The position numbers were made by a program, and so were the translations under genes. A stretch of DNA of 16,460 nt from Actinomycetota bacterium. Lineage in GTDB: Bacteria; Actinomycetota; Acidimicrobiia; Acidimicrobiales; Iamiaceae. Numbering within the stretch: the first letter of the stretch is position 1; each line of letters starts with the position of its first letter. The notes under the pieces are model-generated. The model had not been told where the DNA came from. It ran no database searches and saw nothing but the letters and a program-made list of their open reading frames with translations. The stretch covers positions 1 through 16,460 of the forward strand of contig JADGOP010000009.1 of the NCBI GenBank assembly GCA_017882935.1, read 5' to 3'. This document shows positions 6,920-14,312 of this stretch, piece after piece.

Positions 6920-7924
6920 TCAGGCGCGGGCGCGGGCGTCGGCCAGCAGGGCCGCGCCGATGGCCCCGGCCTGCTCCCCCAGCTCCGCCTGCACGATCGG
7001 CACCGCAGGGCGGTGGTCGTGCGCCAGCACCAGGCTGGGGTACGCGGCGCGGACGGGGTCGAGCACGAGCGGGCCCGCTTGCGAGAGGCCCCCGCCGATC
7101 ACCACGATCTCCGAGTCGAGGATGTTGACGAGGTTGGCCACGCCGAGCGCCACCCACCAGCCGAAGTCGCGCAGCACGCGCCGCGCGCCCTCGTCACCCT
7201 CGGCGGCGGCTTGCGTGACGTGCTCGCCCTTCACGTCCTCGGGGTCACCGCCGGCCAGGGCGACGACGCGCTCCGCGTGCCCCGCGTTGGCGGCGTCGCG
7301 CGCCAGTCGGCCCAGCCCGCTCCCCGACGCGTAGCGCTCCCAGCAGCCCCGGCGTCCGCACGGGCACGGTGGTCCCGACGGGTCGACCACCATGTGCCCG
7401 GGCTCGCCGGCGAACCCGTGGGCGCCCCGGAGCAGTGAGCCCTTCACGGTGATGCCCGCACCGATGCCGGTGCCGAGCGTGACCAGCAGCGAGTGGTTCT
7501 TGTGGCGCGACGCGCCGCGCTCGTGCTCGCCCCACGCAGCGCAGGTGGCGTCGTTGTCGACCGTCGTCGGAAGGCCCGTGCGCTCCTGCAGCAGCGCGCC
7601 GAAGGCATGGTCGATGACGCCCGGCAGGTTCGGCCCGGTGCGCAGCGTCCCCGACCGGTCGACGAGGCCCGGTGCCCCCATGCCCACCGACGACAGGTCG
7701 CACCCGAGGTCGCGCTGCACGCGGGTGCGCAGCTCGGTCACCATGTCGACCAGCACGTCACCCAGGGCCGCCGCGTCGCCGTGCAGCGTGGGGACGCGGT
7801 GCTCAGCCAGGATCGGACCGTCGGTGGTGGGGTCGATGACGACGCCCAGCAGCTTCGTGCCGCCGAGGTCGAGCCCGCACGCCAGCCGCGCCACGCCGCC
7901 CGCCGGACCGGACCCGGACGGCAC
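6920..7924 (-). CDS. glkA: ROK-family glucokinase
   Basis: This is a 334-residue sugar kinase of the ROK family, most likely phosphorylating glucose with ATP (or polyphosphate) in the cytoplasm. The phosphate loop is D19-L-G-G-T-K, and the catalytic base is D125 in T-V-D-N-D-A. The ROK zinc site is complete: H177 in GEPGHM, then C187, C189 and C194 in CPCGRRGC, followed by W-E-R-Y-A-S-G. There is no N-terminal helix-turn-helix, so it is an enzyme and not a ROK repressor. The GTG at 7924 lies 3 nt after the stop of the upstream release-factor-like gene, so the two are translationally coupled. A second in-frame GTG at 7894 is possible. In Streptomyces, as I recall, glkA sits in a comparable region near a PimB-like gene. 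Other sugars (N-acetylglucosamine, mannose) cannot be excluded. Confidence 0.85.
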   Translation of the reverse strand: MPSGSGPAGGVARLACGLDLGGTKLLGVVIDPTTDGPILAEHRVPTLHGDAAALGDVLVDMVTELRTRVQRDLGCDLSSVGMGAPGLVDRSGTLRTGPNLPGVIDHAFGALLQERTGLPTTVDNDATCAAWGEHERGASRHKNHSLLVTLGTGIGAGITVKGSLLRGAHGFAGEPGHMVVDPSGPPCPCGRRGCWERYASGSGLGRLARDAANAGHAERVVALAGGDPEDVKGEHVTQAAAEGDEGARRVLRDFGWWVALGVANLVNILDSEIVVIGGGLSQAGPLVLDPVRAAYPSLVLAHDHRPAVPIVQAELGEQAGAIGAALLADARARA

Positions 7925-7927
7925 CCG

Positions 7928-9037
7928 TCAGTACCGGAGCAGGGCGCCGATGCGCCCGGCCACGTCGAGATCGGCGTTGTCGACGCAGATCTCGACGCGA
8001 CACGACTGCATGAGCGCCGTCTCCACCGCTTCCTCGACGACGTCGCTGACGGCGTGCATCTCGGCACCACAGGAGCTGCACGCACGACCCTTCGCGGCGA
8101 GCAGCTTGCACGAGCCGCAGCGCCAGCCGTCGACGGCGTAGCCCTGCGACACGAGCAAGGTGTCGACGCGGTGCTCAGAAAGTGCGGCGAGGGTGTCGGG
8201 GAGCCCCGACGCGCCCTTGCCGGTGCCCACGGCGTCGCGCAGGCGGCCCACCAGCTCGGCCTCCTTGTCGCGCTCGACGCGCGCCTCGACGTCGGCCGCC
8301 GCGTGGCGGATGTCGTCGAGCGAGGCGGTGGGGCTCACGCTGATGCGGCCGCAGTAGCGATCACGCAGGTAGGGGTGGAGCAGGTCGCGCAGGTGCGGCA
8401 CCAGCTCCTCGGGGGCCGCGGCGGTGAAGCGGTCGAAGCCGACCCGCTGGAACACCGACCAGGCCAGCCCGGCGGCGTTGCGCGCGTGCTGGTCGGCCAA
8501 GGCGTCGACGTGGCTGCTGCGGTCGCCGCGCTCGCTGTGCCCGCGCAGGTCGTAGTCGCGCGGCAGCTCGTCGACGTGCTCGGAGTGCTCGACCAGCTCG
8601 CCGAGCTCGAACACGAACATGCGGGCCCGCTGCTTGTCGACCAGCAGCACACCGAAGCGGTCGTACTGCTCGACGACCGACTTGAGCTCGCCCACTGCGG
8701 GCTGGCTGTTGACCACCACGCGGGTGCGCACCGGGACGGGCAGCGGCACGACGTGCCACAGCTCGGGGTCGCTGCACGAGAACATCGCGAGGCCACGGGT
8801 GCGGGAGCGGTCGAAGCCGTCCTTCACGAAGCGCTCGATGCGCTCGAGGTCGCGCCGCACCGGCGCCGACCCGTCGTTGCGCGCGCGGGCACCCCGCAGC
8901 GCCGTGTCGAGCTCGTGCTCGATGTCCTGTTGCCGCAGCAGTCGCCTCCCGTCGACATCGAGGTAGCAGCTGGTGACCGGCGCCGCCCCCTTGAACGTGG
9001 CGAGCTCCCGGATGGCATCCTCGGTGATGACGGGCAA
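7928..9037 (-). CDS. eRF1/Vms1-like release-factor family protein with zinc ribbon (BaeRF)
   Basis: This is a 369-residue protein of the bacterial relatives of eRF1, Dom34 and Vms1, proposed to act in ribosome rescue or peptidyl-tRNA hydrolysis. Residues 1-110 form the N-terminal domain (T-S-C-Y-L-D-V-D-G). The core at about 125-225 has GVLLVDKQRARMFVFELGEL, the strand pair typical of the family's middle domain. It is followed by a charged loop (160-186, including RGHSERGDRSS) where a catalytic GGQ loop would lie; no GGQ is present. The C-terminal eRF1-like domain carries C307-x2-C310-x9-C320-x2-C323, a probable zinc ribbon. The start is TTG at 9037, fixed by a strong AAGGAGG 6 nt upstream. 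It shares an operon with the glucokinase. The exact subfamily and activity are not certain. Confidence 0.75.
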   Translation of the reverse strand: MPVITEDAIRELATFKGAAPVTSCYLDVDGRRLLRQQDIEHELDTALRGARARNDGSAPVRRDLERIERFVKDGFDRSRTRGLAMFSCSDPELWHVVPLPVPVRTRVVVNSQPAVGELKSVVEQYDRFGVLLVDKQRARMFVFELGELVEHSEHVDELPRDYDLRGHSERGDRSSHVDALADQHARNAAGLAWSVFQRVGFDRFTAAAPEELVPHLRDLLHPYLRDRYCGRISVSPTASLDDIRHAAADVEARVERDKEAELVGRLRDAVGTGKGASGLPDTLAALSEHRVDTLLVSQGYAVDGWRCGSCKLLAAKGRACSSCGAEMHAVSDVVEEAVETALMQSCRVEICVDNADLDVAGRIGALLRY

Positions 9038-9118: not shown

Positions 9119-9496
9119 TCAATCCACGGGTATGTGCTCGACGTCGTCGGGCGGTTCGGGGTCGTCGGCGGCTCCCGGTGCGGGACGGCCGGTGGCCCCC
9201 ACCCAGTCGGTGCGCAGGGCGTTTCGGGCGAGGTCGGCGAAGCCCCCGACCAGCTGCACCACGGCGTCGGGGTCGTCGACCACGCCTTCCGCGACGTCGA
9301 GCACCGTGCGGGCCGCCCGGATCAGCTCGCGGGCTGCGGCCTGCAGCGCCTCGACGCCACGCTCGATGCGCTCCGACGAGTGCAGCGGGCCCGTCTCGTC
9401 GCCGACCTCTTCGCCCAGCACCTCGTCGTCGTCGGATGGCCAGGGGCCCCAGCCCGCGTCGTCGTCGGCGCCGTCGTCGAACCGGTCGTCGCTCAT
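9119..9496 (-). CDS. Small acidic protein linked to the ArsA-like ATPase (Rv2183c position)
   Basis: I do not recognise a functional domain in this 125-residue protein. The N-terminal 40 residues are dominated by Asp and Glu (MSDDRFDDGADDDAGWGPW). The middle (about 45-95) is a helical segment, G-V-E-A-L-Q-A-A-A-R-E-L-I-R-A-A-R-T-V-L-D. The tail is again acidic and Pro-rich and ends in H-I-P-V-D. There is no signal peptide or membrane segment. The ATG overlaps the stop of the ArsA-like gene (ATGA), so the two are made together. It occupies the place of Rv2183c in the mycobacterial locus, and sequence equivalence is plausible but unchecked. A role as adaptor or regulator of the ATPase is a guess from its position. 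Confidence 0.75.
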   Translation of the reverse strand: MSDDRFDDGADDDAGWGPWPSDDDEVLGEEVGDETGPLHSSERIERGVEALQAAARELIRAARTVLDVAEGVVDDPDAVVQLVGGFADLARNALRTDWVGATGRPAPGAADDPEPPDDVEHIPVD

Positions 9497-10722
9497 GCCG
9501 TCTTGCGCCCCTGGCCGAAGGTGACGCGCAGGGTGCCCTCGCGGAGCGCCGCGCCCACGACCTTGCGACGGCGGAGCGTGTCGGGGAGGAGCACGACCCG
9601 ACGATAGGGCCCGACGCGCACGAGCAGCTCGTCGTCGTGGCGCCCGAGGTCGAGGTCGTCGCGCTCGGCGAAGGGCAGGGGCAGCACGAGCGTGGCGCGC
9701 CCGTCGGACGCGGTCTCGACCTGGAGCAGCTCGCCCTCGTGCAGCACGGCGGCGGGATCGAGGCCCTGGTAGAGCAGCGCGCCGAACGCCCGCAGCCGCT
9801 CGAAGCCGACCAGCTCCTCGGCCGCCAGCTCGGCGCGCAGCACGGGCACCGGCGCGAAGCCGTCGTCGATGGTCTCGAGGTGCTCGGCCTGCAGTGCCTT
9901 CCACCGGTCGAACCAGGGGTCGCTGACCTCGGGCGGGAGCAGGCGGTTGGCCACCACGGCGTCGACGCGGTAGCCGAACAGCGACAGGTAGGTGTAGGTG
10001 CGCTGCGCCTCGGCGATGACCACCTTCTCGGGGTTCATGACCAGGCGGATGCTGGTGGTCGACGCGTCGGTGAGCACCGAGTGCACCCCGTCGAGCCGCT
10101 CGTAGAAGTCGTTCGCGGCCCCGAACACGTTGTCGCCCGCCACCGGCAGCGAGGTGACCCGCGCCAGGATCGGCGACACCACCTTGTTCACGCGACGGCC
10201 CACGGGGAACAGCCGGTCCATGTACCAGGCGAGGATCTCGGGCAGGGACAGCAGGCGCAGCGTCTCCGCCGTCGGGGCGCAGTCGACCACCACCACATCC
10301 CACTCGTCGGCGTCGACGTAGGACTTGATGTCGCTCAGCGCGAAGAGCTCGTCGAGCCCGGGGAGCATCGACAGCTCCTCGGCCCGGATGCCCTCGACGC
10401 CGGCCCAGTCGAAGACCTGCATCAGGTACGCCTGGATCTCCGCCCACGAGTCCTCCATGCGGTCCTGCGCGTCGAGCTGCTGGCCCCACAACCGCTCGTG
10501 GCCGCCCACCCGCGCCGCGAGCGGGCCCAGCGGCTCGTCGAAGGCGTCGCCGAGGGAGTGCGCGGGGTCGGTGGACAGCACGATGGTGCGCAGCCCCGCA
10601 TCCGCGCACTGCAGGGCGGTGGCTGCGGCCACGCTGGTCTTGCCCACCCCACCCTTGCCAGTGAACAGCAGCACCCGGGTGCGGGTGCCCAGCCGGCCCT
10701 GCGGCCGGGCGGACGTGGTCAC
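9493..10722 (-). CDS. ArsA/GET3-family ATPase with C-terminal HSP20-like domain
   Basis: This is a 409-residue deviant-Walker ATPase. The P-loop is G22-K-G-G-V-G-K-T-S. Switch I is S50-T-D-P-A-H-S-L-G-D, and switch II is the D-C-A-P-T-A-E-T-L stretch. The NPEKVVIAEAQRTY segment is typical of actinobacterial ArsA-like proteins. The last ~70 residues (about 338-409) match the ArsA_HSP20 pattern: LVLPLPF, DELLVRVGPYRRVVLLP, then L-R-V-T-F-G. The CxxC zinc pair of eukaryotic GET3 is missing and no arsenite-pump partner is nearby, so arsenite transport is unlikely. GTG at 10722 is the start: it overlaps the SRPBCC stop (GTGA), and a much longer open frame running upstream is only the shadow of that gene. 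It corresponds in position to Rv2184c. Handling of a lipid or membrane-protein client is inferred. Confidence 0.88.
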   Translation of the reverse strand: MTTSARPQGRLGTRTRVLLFTGKGGVGKTSVAAATALQCADAGLRTIVLSTDPAHSLGDAFDEPLGPLAARVGGHERLWGQQLDAQDRMEDSWAEIQAYLMQVFDWAGVEGIRAEELSMLPGLDELFALSDIKSYVDADEWDVVVVDCAPTAETLRLLSLPEILAWYMDRLFPVGRRVNKVVSPILARVTSLPVAGDNVFGAANDFYERLDGVHSVLTDASTTSIRLVMNPEKVVIAEAQRTYTYLSLFGYRVDAVVANRLLPPEVSDPWFDRWKALQAEHLETIDDGFAPVPVLRAELAAEELVGFERLRAFGALLYQGLDPAAVLHEGELLQVETASDGRATLVLPLPFAERDDLDLGRHDDELLVRVGPYRRVVLLPDTLRRRKVVGAALREGTLRVTFGQGRKTA

Positions 10723-11189
10723 GCGGGGTCGCCAGAGGCCGTCTGGACCGCCTCGACCCGACGCTTGAGGTCGCGCAGCGCAGTGTGGATGATCTTGAGC
10801 TCGGCGCGCCGCTTCACGAACACGGGCAGCGGGAACACCAGCTCGACCAGCAGCTCGTAGCGCACGTCGGTGCGCGACGGGTCGGCGTCGACCTCGGCGA
10901 AGTCGTAGTAGCCGTCGAGCTTGCGGGCGATGTCGCCGGCCTCGAGCACCCAGGCCAGGCGACCGGGCGCGCCCGAGTAGTCGTAGCGCAGCGTGTAGCT
11001 GGTGCTGTGGCCCATGGCAGCGGCGCGGAACGCCACGAGGGTGGGTCGCTGCTCGTCGTCGCGCTCGACGACGGTGACGGCCTTGATGTCGGGCGCCCAC
11101 TCCGGGTACGCCTCGACGTCGGCGGCGACCGCATAGCAACGCGCGGGCGACGCATCGATCACGGTCTGCTCCAGGGCGTGGTCGGCCAT
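10719..11189 (-). CDS. SRPBCC (polyketide cyclase/START-like) lipid-binding protein
   Basis: This 156-residue protein has the SRPBCC helix-grip layout. It begins with a beta strand (H-A-L-E-Q-T-V-I-D-A), then A-S-P-A-R-C-Y-A-V-A-A-D-V-E-A-Y-P-E-W-A-P, the usual helix pair followed by the D-x-x-x-Y-P-x-W signature. Alternating strands follow, and it ends in a long amphipathic helix (K-I-I-H-T-A-L-R-D-L-K-R-R-V-E). The fold binds hydrophobic ligands in a deep cavity; no ligand can be named. The ATG at 11189 has AGGAG about 10 nt upstream and fits the family N-terminus. Its stop overlaps the ATPase start. It sits where Rv2185c (TB16.3) lies in M. tuberculosis, next to the same ATPase type. A shared lipid-handling task with the ATPase is inferred. 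Confidence 0.88.
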   Translation of the reverse strand: MADHALEQTVIDASPARCYAVAADVEAYPEWAPDIKAVTVVERDDEQRPTLVAFRAAAMGHSTSYTLRYDYSGAPGRLAWVLEAGDIARKLDGYYDFAEVDADPSRTDVRYELLVELVFPLPVFVKRRAELKIIHTALRDLKRRVEAVQTASGDPA

Positions 11190-11284
11190 GGGGTTGCGAC
11201 TCCTCGTGTCGGTCCGGGTCTGTCCCAGCCCGTGCAGCATTCTGGCCGATGGCGCGGCTGCGGCGCGACGCCGGTGGTCTGCGG

Positions 11285-11869
11285 TCAGCCGCGGCGCCGC
11301 TTGCGCCGCCGGAACAGCTGGTCGAAGTCGTCGAGGTCGTCGTCGTCGGGCGGGGCGTCGGCGTCGGGCCCCGGCGCGGCATCGGGCCCCGACGGGTCGG
11401 GCCCCACGGTTGCTGCCGACGGCTCACCGATGGCGGGGAAGGTGCCGTGGCGGGCCGCCCACAGGCCGATGATGCCGACCCCGAACAGCGGCACCAGGAT
11501 CCCGAAGGCGAGCGGGGTGAAGGGCCGGATCGCTGCGGTCATGACGGCCACGACCACCTGCAGGGTGAGGTAGCCGAGCAGCCGCACGCGGACGTCGTCG
11601 GGCGCGCTGCCCTGCAGGAAGTAGAGCCCGGGCAGCGTGACCACGTCGTCGCGGCTGCGGCCCGCGGCCACGAGCAGCCCCCATGCGAACGTGACCACGC
11701 CGACGAGGAACAGCGCGAGCGACACGACCACCGCCACGGCCAGCACGGCGCCCCGCGGCACCACGTCGGCGGCGACCTGCGTGGCGGTGAACACCGCCGT
11801 GGCGACGCCGTCGAAGCGGATCAGGCCCAGGCCGGGGATCGCGGCGTCGGGTGCGGGGTCGGGGCTCAC
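11285..11869 (-). CDS. Small three-helix membrane protein (Rv2186c position)
   Basis: This 194-residue membrane protein belongs to no family I recognise. Hydrophobic segments are at about 41-69, 97-113 and 118-139 (P-L-A-F-G-I-L-V-P-L-F-G). The first is long and could span as a single bent helix. The C-terminal 45 residues are cytoplasmic in character: Pro/Asp-rich, then an acidic patch (DDDDLDDFD) and a basic end (R-R-R-K-R-R-R-G). The GTG at 11869 overlaps the stop of the preceding ANL-like gene (GTGA), which sets the start. A 95-bp gap follows before the SRPBCC gene, containing a possible CAGAAT -10 (11244 to 11239, minus strand). It occupies the position of Rv2186c in mycobacteria. It could anchor the neighbouring soluble proteins to the membrane, but that is a guess. 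Confidence 0.8.
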   Translation of the reverse strand: MSPDPAPDAAIPGLGLIRFDGVATAVFTATQVAADVVPRGAVLAVAVVVSLALFLVGVVTFAWGLLVAAGRSRDDVVTLPGLYFLQGSAPDDVRVRLLGYLTLQVVVAVMTAAIRPFTPLAFGILVPLFGVGIIGLWAARHGTFPAIGEPSAATVGPDPSGPDAAPGPDADAPPDDDDLDDFDQLFRRRKRRRG

Positions 11870-13188
11870 GGGCGAGACCCCGGCGGGTGCGCCGGGGCCA
11901 TGTCGAGGTGCACGTTGGCGTGGTCGTCGAGCCAGCCGTGCCGCCCGGTGTCCACCCGGCCCGACTTCCCCTCACCGGAGCCGCCCTCGAGCCCCGCTCC
12001 CGTGACCACGAGCTCGCCGTGACCGGCGGCGTCGGGGTCGGCCACCAGCACCGAGCGACCCGGGAGCGGGCGGCCGAGACCCCCGTCGGGCCCTCCGGGC
12101 GCGCGGCCCACCGTGGCCGGTCCCACCACCCCTGCAGGGGTCCAGGCGCTGACGACGTCGACCCCCACCGCGGCGAGGTCGAGGCGGGTGCGCTCGTCGA
12201 GGGCGCCGGTGACCAGGGCGAGCCCGCAGGCGTCGAGCCCCACGGCCGTCCGCATCCGGCCCCCGAGCGCTGCCCGTAGCCCCGCGTGCGCGGCCCGGTC
12301 GAAGCGGCCGTCGGACGGGTGCCCGAGGAGGCGCAGCCCACCCGGCACGCGGCGGGCCTCGTCGCGCAGCCGTTGGTGCAGCAGCGCCCAGCCCTCGGTG
12401 TCGGCCACCACGGCGGCCGGGTGGTGCCCCGCGGTGGCCTCCGCGAGCCCACGATGGTCGACGAGGTGGCCGTCGCGGCCGCTCACGGCGGGCCACCAGG
12501 TGCCGAGGGCCCGGCTGGTCACGTCGCTCCAACGCCCCACCACCACGACGGGCCCGGCGGCCTCGGGCGCGACCGGGGCCGGGGGCACCGGCACCTCGAA
12601 CGCCCGCGCCAGCACCTGCACACCGAGGTGGAGCGACCGGTGCGAGAACCCGGCCTCGCGCTCCCCCGCTCCCCCGGCGTCGAGCACGACCACCGCGAGG
12701 TCGTCGGGGGGAAGGGCGGCGAGCAGGCGCTCGAAGGCGTCGGGCTCGGCGACGTCGGCCTGCCGACCGAGGCCCGCCACCCGGGCGAACGCGGGGTCGT
12801 CGGGCGGCTCGCCCGCGGTGGCGACCAGCCCGAGCGTGTGGTCGGGGCGCTCGGCGACGCACCAGGTGGCGCCGACGCCGCGCAGCACGTGGCCGGCGGC
12901 CTCGACGCCGATCGCCGCCGGGACCGGGACGACCGCCCCGCCAGCGACCCACACCCCGAGCTCGAGCGCGGCGCCGTGCGCACCGTCGTCGAGGACCAAC
13001 CCGACCCGGTCGCCGCGGCGCAGGCCGATGGCCCGCAGGCCGAGCGCCACGTCGCGGGCCCGGCTCACGATGCTCGCCCAGTGGGGCCCGGGCCCACCCC
13101 TCAGGTCGGCCCCCGCCCGCGTCGCGGGGTGGCGGTGGGCGGCGGCGACCAGCGCCGCCGCGAGCGTGGGCGGGTGGTCGGCGCTCAC
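11866..13188 (-). CDS. Degenerate AMP-binding (ANL) protein, FadD15-like position, likely non-catalytic
   Basis: This 440-residue protein resembles the large N-terminal domain of acyl-CoA ligases but lacks their active-site motifs. The beginning is clear: L-R-A-I-G-L-R-R-G-D-R-V (51-62) and G-G-A-V-V-P-V-P-A (83-91) match the family's G-V-x-x-G-D-R-V and G-A-x-x-V-P-x motifs. The phosphate-binding motif (normally T-S-G-T-T-G-x-P-K-G) is reduced to L-D-A-G-G-A-G-E-R-E-A-G-F-S-H-R-S-L (169-186). The Y-G-x-T-E motif is A-W-T-P-A-G. A trace of Y-R-T-G-D remains as V-D-T-G-R-H-G-W-L-D-D. The C-terminal lid with the catalytic lysine is absent. GTG at 13188 was chosen because it overlaps the pimB stop (GTGA); an in-frame GTG two codons earlier is possible. 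It probably binds acyl groups or acts as a scaffold. Confidence 0.78.
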   Translation of the reverse strand: MSADHPPTLAAALVAAAHRHPATRAGADLRGGPGPHWASIVSRARDVALGLRAIGLRRGDRVGLVLDDGAHGAALELGVWVAGGAVVPVPAAIGVEAAGHVLRGVGATWCVAERPDHTLGLVATAGEPPDDPAFARVAGLGRQADVAEPDAFERLLAALPPDDLAVVVLDAGGAGEREAGFSHRSLHLGVQVLARAFEVPVPPAPVAPEAAGPVVVVGRWSDVTSRALGTWWPAVSGRDGHLVDHRGLAEATAGHHPAAVVADTEGWALLHQRLRDEARRVPGGLRLLGHPSDGRFDRAAHAGLRAALGGRMRTAVGLDACGLALVTGALDERTRLDLAAVGVDVVSAWTPAGVVGPATVGRAPGGPDGGLGRPLPGRSVLVADPDAAGHGELVVTGAGLEGGSGEGKSGRVDTGRHGWLDDHANVHLDMAPAHPPGSRP

Positions 13189-14312
13189 GGGCACACCGAG
13201 GCGATGGCGTCGTCGAGCTCGGCCGCCAGGAGGTCGTAGGTGAACTGCTCCACCGCGCGCACCCGGCCTGCGCGGCCCATGGCGTGCCGAATGTCGGGGT
13301 CGTCGAGCAACTGCCGCAGCGCAGCGGCCACGGGCCCCACCTCACGGGGGTTGCGCACGACGAGCCCGGTGGCGCCGTGCTGCACCGCCTCGGCCGACCC
13401 CCCGCTGTCGCCCGCGATCTGGGGGATGCCGGCGGCGGCGGCCTCGAGGAACACGATCCCGAAGCCCTCCTGCTCGAGCCCGGCCCAGCGGTTGCGACAC
13501 AGCATGGCGAACACGTCAGCACAGCCGTACAGGGCAGGGAGGTCGGCGTCGGGCACGCGGCCCAGGAAGCGCACGGGCGCGTCGTGCTCGGCGGCGAGCC
13601 GCTCGAGGCGGTGGCGGTCGCGGCCCGCGCCCCCGATGGCCACCACGAGCTTCGGATGGTGGCCGCGGAGGCGGGCCGCGGCCTCGATGAGGACGTCCAT
13701 GCCCTTGCGCGGCACGAGGCGGCTCACCGACACGACGAGCTGCGCGTCGGGCGCCACCCCGAACGCCTCCCGGGCCCGCAGGCGCGCGGCCCGGTCGAGG
13801 GGGGTGAACCGGTCGACGTCGACCCCGGGCGGGACGACCACCGTGGGCAGGGGCCGGCCGGCGGACCGCTCGGCCTCCGCAGCGGGGTAGCCGCCCGCCG
13901 CCACGACCAGCCGGGCGTCGCGCAGCACGCGGGCGAGCGGGTGGCGGAAGCCCACGCCCCGGGCGGGGACGGTGACCTCGGCGCCGTGGATCACCACGCC
14001 GTAGGGGCGCGCGAGGTGGGGGCCGACCAGGCCGAGGGGCAGCACCGGGTCGAGCAGCACCAGGCCGGCACCGACCTCCTCGGCGAGCCCGTCGATGCGC
14101 CGGGCGAGGGCACGGCTGGGCAGCAGGACCCGCGCCGGGTCGCGCACCACGCGGAACGGCTGCGCGTCGTCGAAGCTCCGGGCCCCTTCGTGGGGCGTCG
14201 TGAGCACCGTGACCTCGTCGGCCGGGAGGCGGCGCCACAGCTCCCACAGGTAGGACTGGATGCCGCCGACCTTCGGGGGGAAGTCGTTGGTGACCAGGAG
14301 GTGGGGAGCCAC
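13185..14312 (-). CDS. pimB: GT4 mannosyltransferase, PimB-like
   Basis: This is a 375-residue GT-B glycosyltransferase of family GT4. The opening L-L-V-T-N-D-F-P-P-K-V-G-G-I-Q-S-Y-L (5-22) is characteristic of PimB', which adds the second mannose of phosphatidylinositol mannosides from GDP-mannose on the inner face of the membrane. The C-terminal donor domain shows S-R-L-V-P-R-K-G-M-D, the W-A-G-L-E-Q-E-G-F-G-I-V-F-L-E-A stretch carrying the E-x7-E motif, and G-D-S-G-G-S-A-E-A-V. GTG at 14312 is the only usable start, because an in-frame TAG lies three codons upstream. TTGCCA (14393 to 14388, minus strand) may be a -35 with a poor -10. The gene heads the operon, with the ANL-like gene directly overlapping. 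PI-mannoside production in this organism is inferred; a related glycolipid acceptor is possible. Confidence 0.85.
   Translation of the reverse strand: MAPHLLVTNDFPPKVGGIQSYLWELWRRLPADEVTVLTTPHEGARSFDDAQPFRVVRDPARVLLPSRALARRIDGLAEEVGAGLVLLDPVLPLGLVGPHLARPYGVVIHGAEVTVPARGVGFRHPLARVLRDARLVVAAGGYPAAEAERSAGRPLPTVVVPPGVDVDRFTPLDRAARLRAREAFGVAPDAQLVVSVSRLVPRKGMDVLIEAAARLRGHHPKLVVAIGGAGRDRHRLERLAAEHDAPVRFLGRVPDADLPALYGCADVFAMLCRNRWAGLEQEGFGIVFLEAAAAGIPQIAGDSGGSAEAVQHGATGLVVRNPREVGPVAAALRQLLDDPDIRHAMGRAGRVRAVEQFTYDLLAAELDDAIASVCP

What the first reader, a model, noticed from the sequence alone, without database searches (positions are those of the whole stretch)
9119..14312. Conserved envelope-lipid module: PimB, ANL pseudoenzyme, membrane protein, SRPBCC, ArsA-ATPase, acidic protein
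Six genes on one strand, four of five junctions being 4-bp stop/start overlaps, follow the same order as I recall for Rv2188c to Rv2183c in M. tuberculosis, now in what looks like a distant actinobacterium. Such deep conservation and tight coupling suggest one machine, perhaps moving or delivering a lipid or lipoglycan precursor with the SRPBCC protein as carrier and the ArsA-type ATPase as the energy source. To my knowledge no joint function has been established.
Basis: partly seen in the sequence, partly recalled or inferred. Interest (0 to 1): 0.75.

Follow-up and report, generated by a model that had tools for sequence, protein, structure and literature searches.

The report
ATPase with a tail-docking partner protein
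Across many actinobacteria a Get3-type ATPase is encoded next to a small protein whose short tail seems to plug into the ATPase and mostly decays where the ATPase gene is missing, which points to an unrecognised protein partnership rather than the proposed six-gene lipid machine.

Summary
The six genes, their strand (minus) and four 4-bp overlaps are real, but they are not one conserved module. In 37 loci in or near the window's order, SRPBCC and the small protein occur in 33 each, the PimB'-type GT in 30, the membrane gene in 29, the degenerate ANL in four. In mycobacterium-like loci the ANL is full length on the opposite strand and the membrane protein's slot holds a second SRPBCC-like protein. 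The constant core is a Get3/ArsA ATPase with a C-terminal alpha-crystallin-like domain plus the small 'acidic' protein, which ends in an I-x-I/V/L tail (window: EHIPVD) like motifs that bind alpha-crystallin grooves. A tail gene follows 93 of 107 such ATPases, 5 of 49 other Get3 genes and 42 of 433 random stretches. Where the ATPase gene is missing but SRPBCC and small protein remain, 1 of 11 loci keeps the tail; 37 of 37 relatives with the ATPase do, 30 of them picked by a model that includes the tail. I infer a SRPBCC-adaptor-ATPase complex for a hydrophobic cargo; docking site and cargo are unproven.

The parts
9119..9496 (-). small acidic 'adaptor' protein, 125 aa, no Pfam hit itself; related proteins are DUF5304 (PF17230) or PF27253 in other lineages
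   Evidence: found by the family model in its own genome (6.2e-8)
9125..9133 (-). Ile-Pro-Val of the C-terminal tail ...VEHIPVD (I-x-I/V/L motif)
   Evidence: read from the sequence; conservation
9493..10722 (-). Get3/ArsA-type ATPase, 409 aa, P-loop GKGGVGKT at residue 22, no CXXC
   Evidence: PF02374 and TIGR00345 over cut-off; motifs; PDB relatives
9517..9705 (-). alpha-crystallin/HSP20-like domain of the ATPase (residues 340-402), proposed docking site of the tail
   Evidence: PF17886, 69.5 bits
10719..11189 (-). SRPBCC (START-like) protein, 156 aa
   Evidence: PF03364/PF10604 (scanned with an upstream start); 5z8o 4.5e-10
11285..11869 (-). membrane protein, 194 aa, three hydrophobic segments by a simple scale (four in L005); family of the order
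11866..13188 (-). degenerate ANL protein, 440 aa from this start, lacking catalytic motifs and the C-terminal domain; in 4 of 37 order-level loci
13185..14312 (-). PimB'-type GT4 glycosyltransferase, 375 aa
7928..9037 (-). baeRF family 10 protein, frequent neighbour (26 of 110 loci)
6920..7924 (-). ROK-family protein, glucokinase-like (TIGR00744 229 bits, below its cut-off 260), conserved neighbour (70 of 110 loci)

Best explanation
The core is a SRPBCC-adaptor-ATPase complex. The ATPase is Get3-like and carries an alpha-crystallin-like domain (aCD) at its C terminus. The small acidic protein is its adaptor: its C-terminal I-x-I/V/L tail lies as a beta-strand in the aCD groove, as IXI tails of small heat-shock proteins and the IPV motifs of BAG3 do, while its N-terminal part (helix, in many lineages with a CPxC knuckle) serves the SRPBCC partner or another common function. 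The SRPBCC protein would hold a hydrophobic cargo (lipid, acyl chain or membrane segment) and exchange it with the hydrophobic chamber of the Get3-like protein, ATP hydrolysis driving hand-over where the P-loop is intact. Shown by comparison: the linkage, the tail, and its decay in most loci where the ATPase is missing. Inferred: the docking site, the complex, the cargo, the ATP step. PimB', the membrane protein, the ANL pseudoenzyme, the ROK protein and baeRF are neighbours, not proven parts.
For: Linkage: in 296 genomes of the phylum 102 of 115 small-protein hits lie within -60 to 1500 nt downstream of an aCD-type ATPase on the same strand; 103 genomes hold both (112 the ATPase by my reading of the list, 111 the small protein). 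Tail: 79 of 99 slot genes end in the strict motif, against 19 of 813 other small genes; 93 of 107 aCD loci have a tail ORF within 900 nt, against 5 of 49 other Get3/Bag genes and 42 of 433 random stretches. ATPase-missing loci: in f61, g164 and G046 SRPBCC, knuckle and helix stay and the tail goes (lost, lost, degraded to RIDAV); tail kept in 1 of 11 such loci against 37 of 37 relatives with the ATPase. Beyond the phylum: Glassbacteria L009 has the pair, tail KKVEVE, and its small protein shares PF27253 with actinobacterial hits. AlphaFold: tethered to the ATPase the L009 tail is a strand (464-466, up to the first V of V-E-V) and the best-scored block of the small part (66); alone it is below 50 with no strand. 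PF17886 also rings in 8 of 14 control genomes and on short frames that I read as ordinary HSP20 genes. b4-b8 groove binding IXI and BAG3: PMC6212398 (passages).
Against: No coordinates were seen, so the partner of the tail strand is unknown; the five models vary (mean pLDDT 74 to 46). Covariation was null (top-30 share of aCD columns 0.27 against 0.24 shuffled). The ATPase-missing loci are about five lineages, and one (G016, L276) keeps RPVDLG. 30 of the 37 ATPase-bearing relatives are the best hits of a model that includes the tail; the unpicked comparison is 93 of 107. Streptomyces-like ATPases (L129-L134, L136, L141) have GxGGxGRT instead of GKGGxGKT, so ATP hydrolysis cannot be general, although their partners keep the tail. 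Fusobacterium L220 has two aCD ATPases and no small gene beside them. L057 and L064 have no small gene between ATPase and ROK. 33 of 110 loci show no SRPBCC, some at contig ends. Nine ATPase genomes gave no small-protein hit. The non-aCD controls are partly from another phylum. In one search the Glassbacteria genome was the only one of 150 whose listed match reached the aCD.
Confidence: 0.52

Rival explanations
1. The small protein and the ATPase do bind, but the tail docks on the Get3 core or its dimer interface, not on the aCD groove.
For: The tail goes with the ATPase as a whole; the model gives a strand but not its partner; Get4 and the aCD use one surface on Get3 (PMC10248533, section 8).
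Against: Beside Get3/Bag genes without aCD the tail gene is no commoner than chance (5 of 49), and the motif type matches known aCD ligands.
Confidence: 0.2
2. One reading: one envelope-lipid machine of all six genes, moving a PIM/lipoglycan precursor.
For: PimB' is the nearest solved relative of the GT; GT is in 30, SRPBCC in 33 and the membrane gene in 29 of 37 order-level loci; Get3d can carry phospholipid-like density (PMC10248533, discussion passage); expression zone of Rv2184c.
Against: ANL in 4 of 37, membrane family in 7 of 110 and GT in 41 of 110 phylum loci; the pair also stands beside TyrS-like (L092, L102) and PdxS-like genes (L100, L103), both named by eye.
Confidence: 0.1
3. The small protein is a thioredoxin-like redox partner of the ATPase, working through its CPxC cysteines.
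For: Rv2183c (131 aa) is listed as Trx-like beside Rv2184c in PMC3792642 (one table passage); at least 37 of 99 slot proteins have CPxC (some starts were called too late).
Against: The window's, Streptomyces-like and L084-L109-type members lack CPxC; the L009 member is modelled as two helices; it is the tail, not the cysteines, that goes when the ATPase is missing.
Confidence: 0.08
4. Only co-transcription: the genes are neighbours for expression reasons and the tail has an unrelated role.
For: 4-bp overlaps are common here (91 of 344 pairs); L276 keeps a tail without the ATPase.
Against: The pair keeps together in several gene contexts and in Glassbacteria, and the tail decays in most ATPase-less loci.
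Confidence: 0.1

Closest known systems
Get3d (NosGet3d 8egk/3igf, AtGet3d 8elf; NCBIfam NF050088)
   Same: Get3 fold with C-terminal alpha-crystallin domain, no CXXC; Foldseek aligns the tethered L009 model with 8egk over 402 columns, gaps included (TMt 0.76)
   Different: Active-site motifs of the window protein are complete; nearest PDB sequences are ARSA1 5zme and archaeal Get3 3ug6, NosGet3d 5.6e-20; NF050088 below cut-off (139 of 325 bits); has a small partner gene
IXI tails of small heat-shock proteins and IPV motifs of BAG3
   Same: Short I-x-I/V motif bound by an alpha-crystallin groove (PMC6212398, passages)
   Different: Here the motif is on a separate small protein and the domain is fused to a Get3-type ATPase; binding untested
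DUF5304 (PF17230) and PF27253
   Same: Streptomyces-like member 236.7 bits; the Nonomuraea member, with knuckle and tail, 32.4 bits over the cut-off of 26.8; many database hits incl. Glassbacteria carry PF27253
   Different: No function found: the search for these names and PF17886 gave one paper, on Get3d; PF27253 is not in the local Pfam copy
BagA/BagB (Rv3679/Rv3680) of mycobacteria
   Same: ArsA/Get3-type ATPases in actinobacteria (PMC10597346, passages)
   Different: Weak family match of the window protein (BagB 59, BagA 39 bits); tail gene not above chance beside the Bag-like and other non-aCD genes examined
M. tuberculosis Rv2188c-Rv2183c cluster
   Same: PimB', SRPBCC, ATPase and small protein in that order (gene names recalled; Rv2183c 131 aa beside Rv2184c)
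   Different: By mycobacterium-like loci: ANL opposite and full length; second SRPBCC-like protein instead of a membrane protein

Membership tests
Get3d | C-terminal alpha-crystallin domain (PF17886) | tested here: met
   69.5 bits; 107 of 110 loci reach position 390 or more of the 405 of my model
Get3d | no Zn-binding CXXC | tested here: met
   none in the window protein; 0 of 110 in residues 181-310
Get3d | membership by NF050088 cut-off | tested here: not met
   139 bits, cut-off 325; no tree was built
Get3d | photosynthetic host | not tested
   host is kin of Acidimicrobiia MAGs; photosynthesis genes not searched
IXI/alpha-crystallin ligand | I-x-I/V/L near the C terminus | tested here: met
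   79 of 99 strict; window EHIPVD
IXI/alpha-crystallin ligand | binds the b4-b8 groove | tested here: inconclusive
   strand in the tethered model, partner not visible
PimB' | closest solved relative is PimB' | tested here: met
   3oka 2e-54, only PimB' at E <= 1e-25
ANL acyl-CoA ligase (FadD15-like) | TSGTTGxPK, YGxTE, TGD motifs and C-terminal domain | tested here: not met
   alignment with five full-length ANLs
GET tail-anchored pathway | binds tail-anchored clients | not testable with these tools
   no client known here

The most novel reading that the evidence does not exclude
Bacterial Get3-type ATPases with an alpha-crystallin domain are switched or loaded by a dedicated adaptor that plugs an IPV-type tail into that domain, as BAG3 does with small heat-shock proteins, and couples a START-like cargo binder to them: an unrecognised three-part chaperone or lipid/membrane-protein delivery system spread over Actinobacteria and beyond, giving the unexplained aCD of Get3 proteins a function.
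Probability: 0.42. Interest if true: 0.85.

Novelty: new variant of a known kind. Interest (0 to 1): 0.68.

Why it matters
The Get3d paper that I opened calls the role of the alpha-crystallin domain unclear and says new partners would be needed for targeting (PMC10248533, passages and section 8). A conserved small gene whose tail depends on such an ATPase offers a partner and a cheap test. It would also give a biochemical handle on DUF5304/PF27253 and on uncharacterised genes beside pimB' in actinobacteria.

Tried and rejected
Six-gene module: rejected. Tail-anchored protein SCO2124 as built-in client: the tail printed in PMC3087755 (passage) resembles a gene at +4 on the opposite strand in 7 of the 9 Streptomyces-like loci looked at, so not part of the unit. 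Natural ATPase-adaptor fusions: none among the best 120 of 7995 hits (lengths 262-411 for a 469-aa query). Covariation: null. Profile-profile links of the membrane protein to three other slot families: none. Plasmid records: two matches covering 80% or more of the query, one of them a counter-example. A first scan suggested that the ANL was private to the window; the order-level search corrected this. Model-reach proxy: small-protein matches reach model position 72 or more of 74 in 21 of 42 genomes of f140 (8 of 16), f139 (6 of 15) and f129 (7 of 11), 41 of them with an adjacent ATPase and G790 with a fragment, against 0 of 24 in the ATPase-less f61 and g164 (my notes say 22, recounted 21). 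It is noisy: ATPase-bearing Streptomyces-like hits also stop short. On checking, the confidence of the best explanation went from 0.55 to 0.52 for the degenerate P-loops, and that of mere co-transcription from 0.07 to 0.10.
Full report
What is there. All six genes are on the minus strand: PimB'-type GT 14312-13185, ANL 13188-11866, membrane protein 11869-11285, SRPBCC 11189-10719, ATPase 10722-9493, small acidic protein 9496-9119. Junctions are GTGA, GTGA, a 95-bp gap, GTGA and ATGA. The window is contig C387 of an incomplete genome (2.76 Mb, 78.7% complete) related to Acidimicrobiia MAGs. The GT finds only PimB' in the PDB at E <= 1e-25. The ATPase has PF02374 and PF17886, a full P-loop and no CXXC.

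Neighbourhoods. From 296 genomes of the phylum (227 with any ArsA-like match) I fetched 105 regions around the best matches (some, such as G183, G205 and G265, were left out; six further stretches there are two tokens and four controls) and added five named loci and the window: 111 loci, an ATPase gene being placed in 110 (L125 gave none; L007 and L072 are one genome). Counts near the ATPase, of 110: SRPBCC 77, ROK 70, PimB'-type GT 41, baeRF 26, ANL 25, window's membrane family 7. For the window's order I added 28 regions and one search locus and counted them with eight earlier loci: 37, L005 and L256 being one genome and L008 known only as Acidimicrobiia. SRPBCC 33, tail-bearing small protein 33, GT 30, membrane gene 29, ROK 28, baeRF 25, ANL 3 by model, a fourth by alignment (L259). 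These four degenerate ANLs are 30-35% alike and lack the catalytic motifs and the C-terminal domain; they lie between GT and membrane gene, in L259 with one more gene before it. In the phylum set the other ANLs are full length: 14 on the opposite strand three genes off, nine on the same strand 5-8 genes off, besides one weak match in L144.

Mycobacterial comparison. Four unnamed loci (L135, L137-L139) show an opposite ANL (599-600 aa), a 129-130-aa protein, SRPBCC of 144-145 aa, ATPase and small protein of 123-134 aa, with the GT upstream. That they are Mycobacterium is my inference; Rv2183c is given as 131 aa beside Rv2184c in PMC3792642 (one table passage), Rv2186c as conserved hypothetical in PMC3388012 (one table row). 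The 129-130-aa protein matches my iterated SRPBCC model (9.5e-20 to 2.5e-18), PF10604 only below its cut-off (0.0005 and 0.005 for two tested), and has no profile link to the window's membrane family (probability below 1%). The named Nonomuraea locus L219 reads ANL (opposite, by eye), metallophosphoesterase, SRPBCC, ATPase, DUF5304-type small protein with knuckle and tail VEHIDLN, ROK-like gene.

The small protein. Of 110 loci, 99 have a same-strand gene of at most 250 aa right after the ATPase; 79 of 99 end in [RKHV][IVL][DEPTNSRAKH][IVL] plus 1-4 residues, 74 of the 79 with exactly one residue after it; among other genes of these loci it is 19 of 813 small and 33 of 1665 in all. At least eight of the remaining loci have a tail ORF that my gene caller missed. 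The N-terminal part varies: CPxC in 37 of 99 as called, a helix in the aligned members (by eye), PF17230 in Streptomyces-like and Nonomuraea members and below cut-off in two knuckle types, PF27253 in many database hits and in the Glassbacteria member. The 120 best of 3085 database hits all end in [RK]ID[IV]x, but a model that includes the tail picked them.

Controls. By one rule (tail ORF within 900 nt downstream, same strand) 93 of 107 aCD-type loci score, 42 of 433 random stretches, and 5 of 49 other Get3/Bag-type genes with at least 500 nt downstream (52 genes listed, 23 of them from the Glassbacteria phylum; the five ORFs do not look like the family; L149 has a second weak match into the aCD). 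Over whole genomes, 112 of 296 have an aCD-type ATPase by my reading, 111 a small-protein hit, 103 both; 102 of 115 small hits are directly downstream. Of the 13 others, three lie beside an ATPase C terminus at a contig edge, one beside a divergent ATPase, three look spurious, one (G264) is near a contig start, and five are loci without the ATPase.

Where the ATPase is missing. In L276, L277, L278 and L280 SRPBCC is followed directly by the small gene and ROK; in L283 SRPBCC lies further off and the small gene looks frameshifted. Six more loci were fetched from the two lineages of L277 and L278. Tail: gone in all eight loci of f61 and g164, RIDAV in L280, broken in L283, RPVDLG kept in L276: 1 of 11. 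Relatives with the ATPase, L291-L327: 37 of 37 (Fisher 1.7e-9, not corrected for kinship; about five lineages). Two cautions: L291-L320 are the 30 best hits of a model with the tail, and the pattern used for the relatives also allowed N before the motif (needed by L296; adding it changes none of the eleven on reading). The f15 set is complete: of its eight small-protein hits seven have the ATPase and an intact tail, the eighth (G046) neither. In the eight f61 and g164 loci knuckle, helix and SRPBCC remain. None of the 10 g164 and 15 f61 genomes searched shows an aCD-type ATPase; their best matches are 5e-22 (G670, without aCD, not adjacent) or weaker than 1e-10. In ATPase-bearing relatives the motif is often followed by about 5-40 residues, which fits a linear motif better than recognition of a free C terminus. 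I read this as a two-part adaptor.

Structure. L009 ATPase and small protein, tethered by reading one stop as W, folded with 24 rows: mean pLDDT 74, strand at 464-466, last block 66 while 455-462 is below 50 and the helices of the small part score 46-55. Alone, with five rows, the small protein is two helices, 73-75 below 50, no strand. Foldseek puts archaeal Get3 first, NosGet3d and AtGet3d in the list. Weak support that the tail pairs with the ATPase; where was not visible.

Reading and limits. ATPase + small protein is the commonest unit, with SRPBCC in most loci but not in L084-L109-type loci. Exceptions: L057 and L064 without small gene, Fusobacterium with two aCD ATPases and none beside them, nine genomes with ATPase but no small hit. 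Streptomyces-like ATPases (eight loci) read GxGGxGRT in the P-loop, L144 GKGGAGRT, so the partnership may outlive catalysis. Cargo is unknown; Get3d showed lipid-like density and binds tail-anchored proteins (PMC10248533, abstract and passages). Searches for earlier reports: two or more of Rv2183c-Rv2188c (two papers), pimB/fadD15/ArsA, DUF5304/PF17230/PF27253/PF17886 (one, the Get3d paper), Get3 with SRPBCC or actinobacterial terms, TB16.3, SCO2124 and others; listings and passages only, no account of this pair seen.

Noticed in passing
L129-L134, L136, L141: The Get3-like protein of Streptomyces-like loci has GxGGxGRT instead of the P-loop GKGGxGKT, so it may be catalytically dead while its DUF5304-type partner keeps the tail (L141's partner has it internally).
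   Followed up: partly
L220 3908-6261: Fusobacterium vincentii record with two tandem ATPases, both with PF17886, and no small tail gene beside them: perhaps a heterodimer that needs no adaptor.
   Followed up: partly
L127 and L128: Tandem ATPase - small protein - ATPase; the small protein of L127 ends RPIDIG.
   Followed up: partly
L040, L042, L254, L261, L269, L274: A ~690-770-aa gene, SMC-like coiled coil by eye in L040 and L261, stands between the small gene and baeRF.
   Followed up: no
L005, L006, L041, L255-L258, L261, L271: A conserved 71-81-aa hydrophobic protein before SRPBCC; absent from the window.
   Followed up: no
L135, L137-L140, L142: Two SRPBCC-like genes in tandem before the ATPase; PMC3388012 lists a conserved noncoding RNA between Rv2185c and Rv2186c.
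   Followed up: partly
G000 contig C437 (L002-L004): The window's genome also has two neighbouring Get3/ArsA-type genes without alpha-crystallin domain.
   Followed up: partly
window 7928-9037: baeRF-family-10 protein, below cut-off for NCBI ribosome hibernation factor families, directly downstream of the unit.
   Followed up: no
15 loci: ATPase and small gene are in the same frame with a single stop between them, 7 of the 15 TAG; no evidence of read-through was sought.
   Followed up: no
L005, L040 (upstream of GT): A QueG-like gene (by eye) overlaps the PimB'-type gene by 4 bp in relatives.
   Followed up: no
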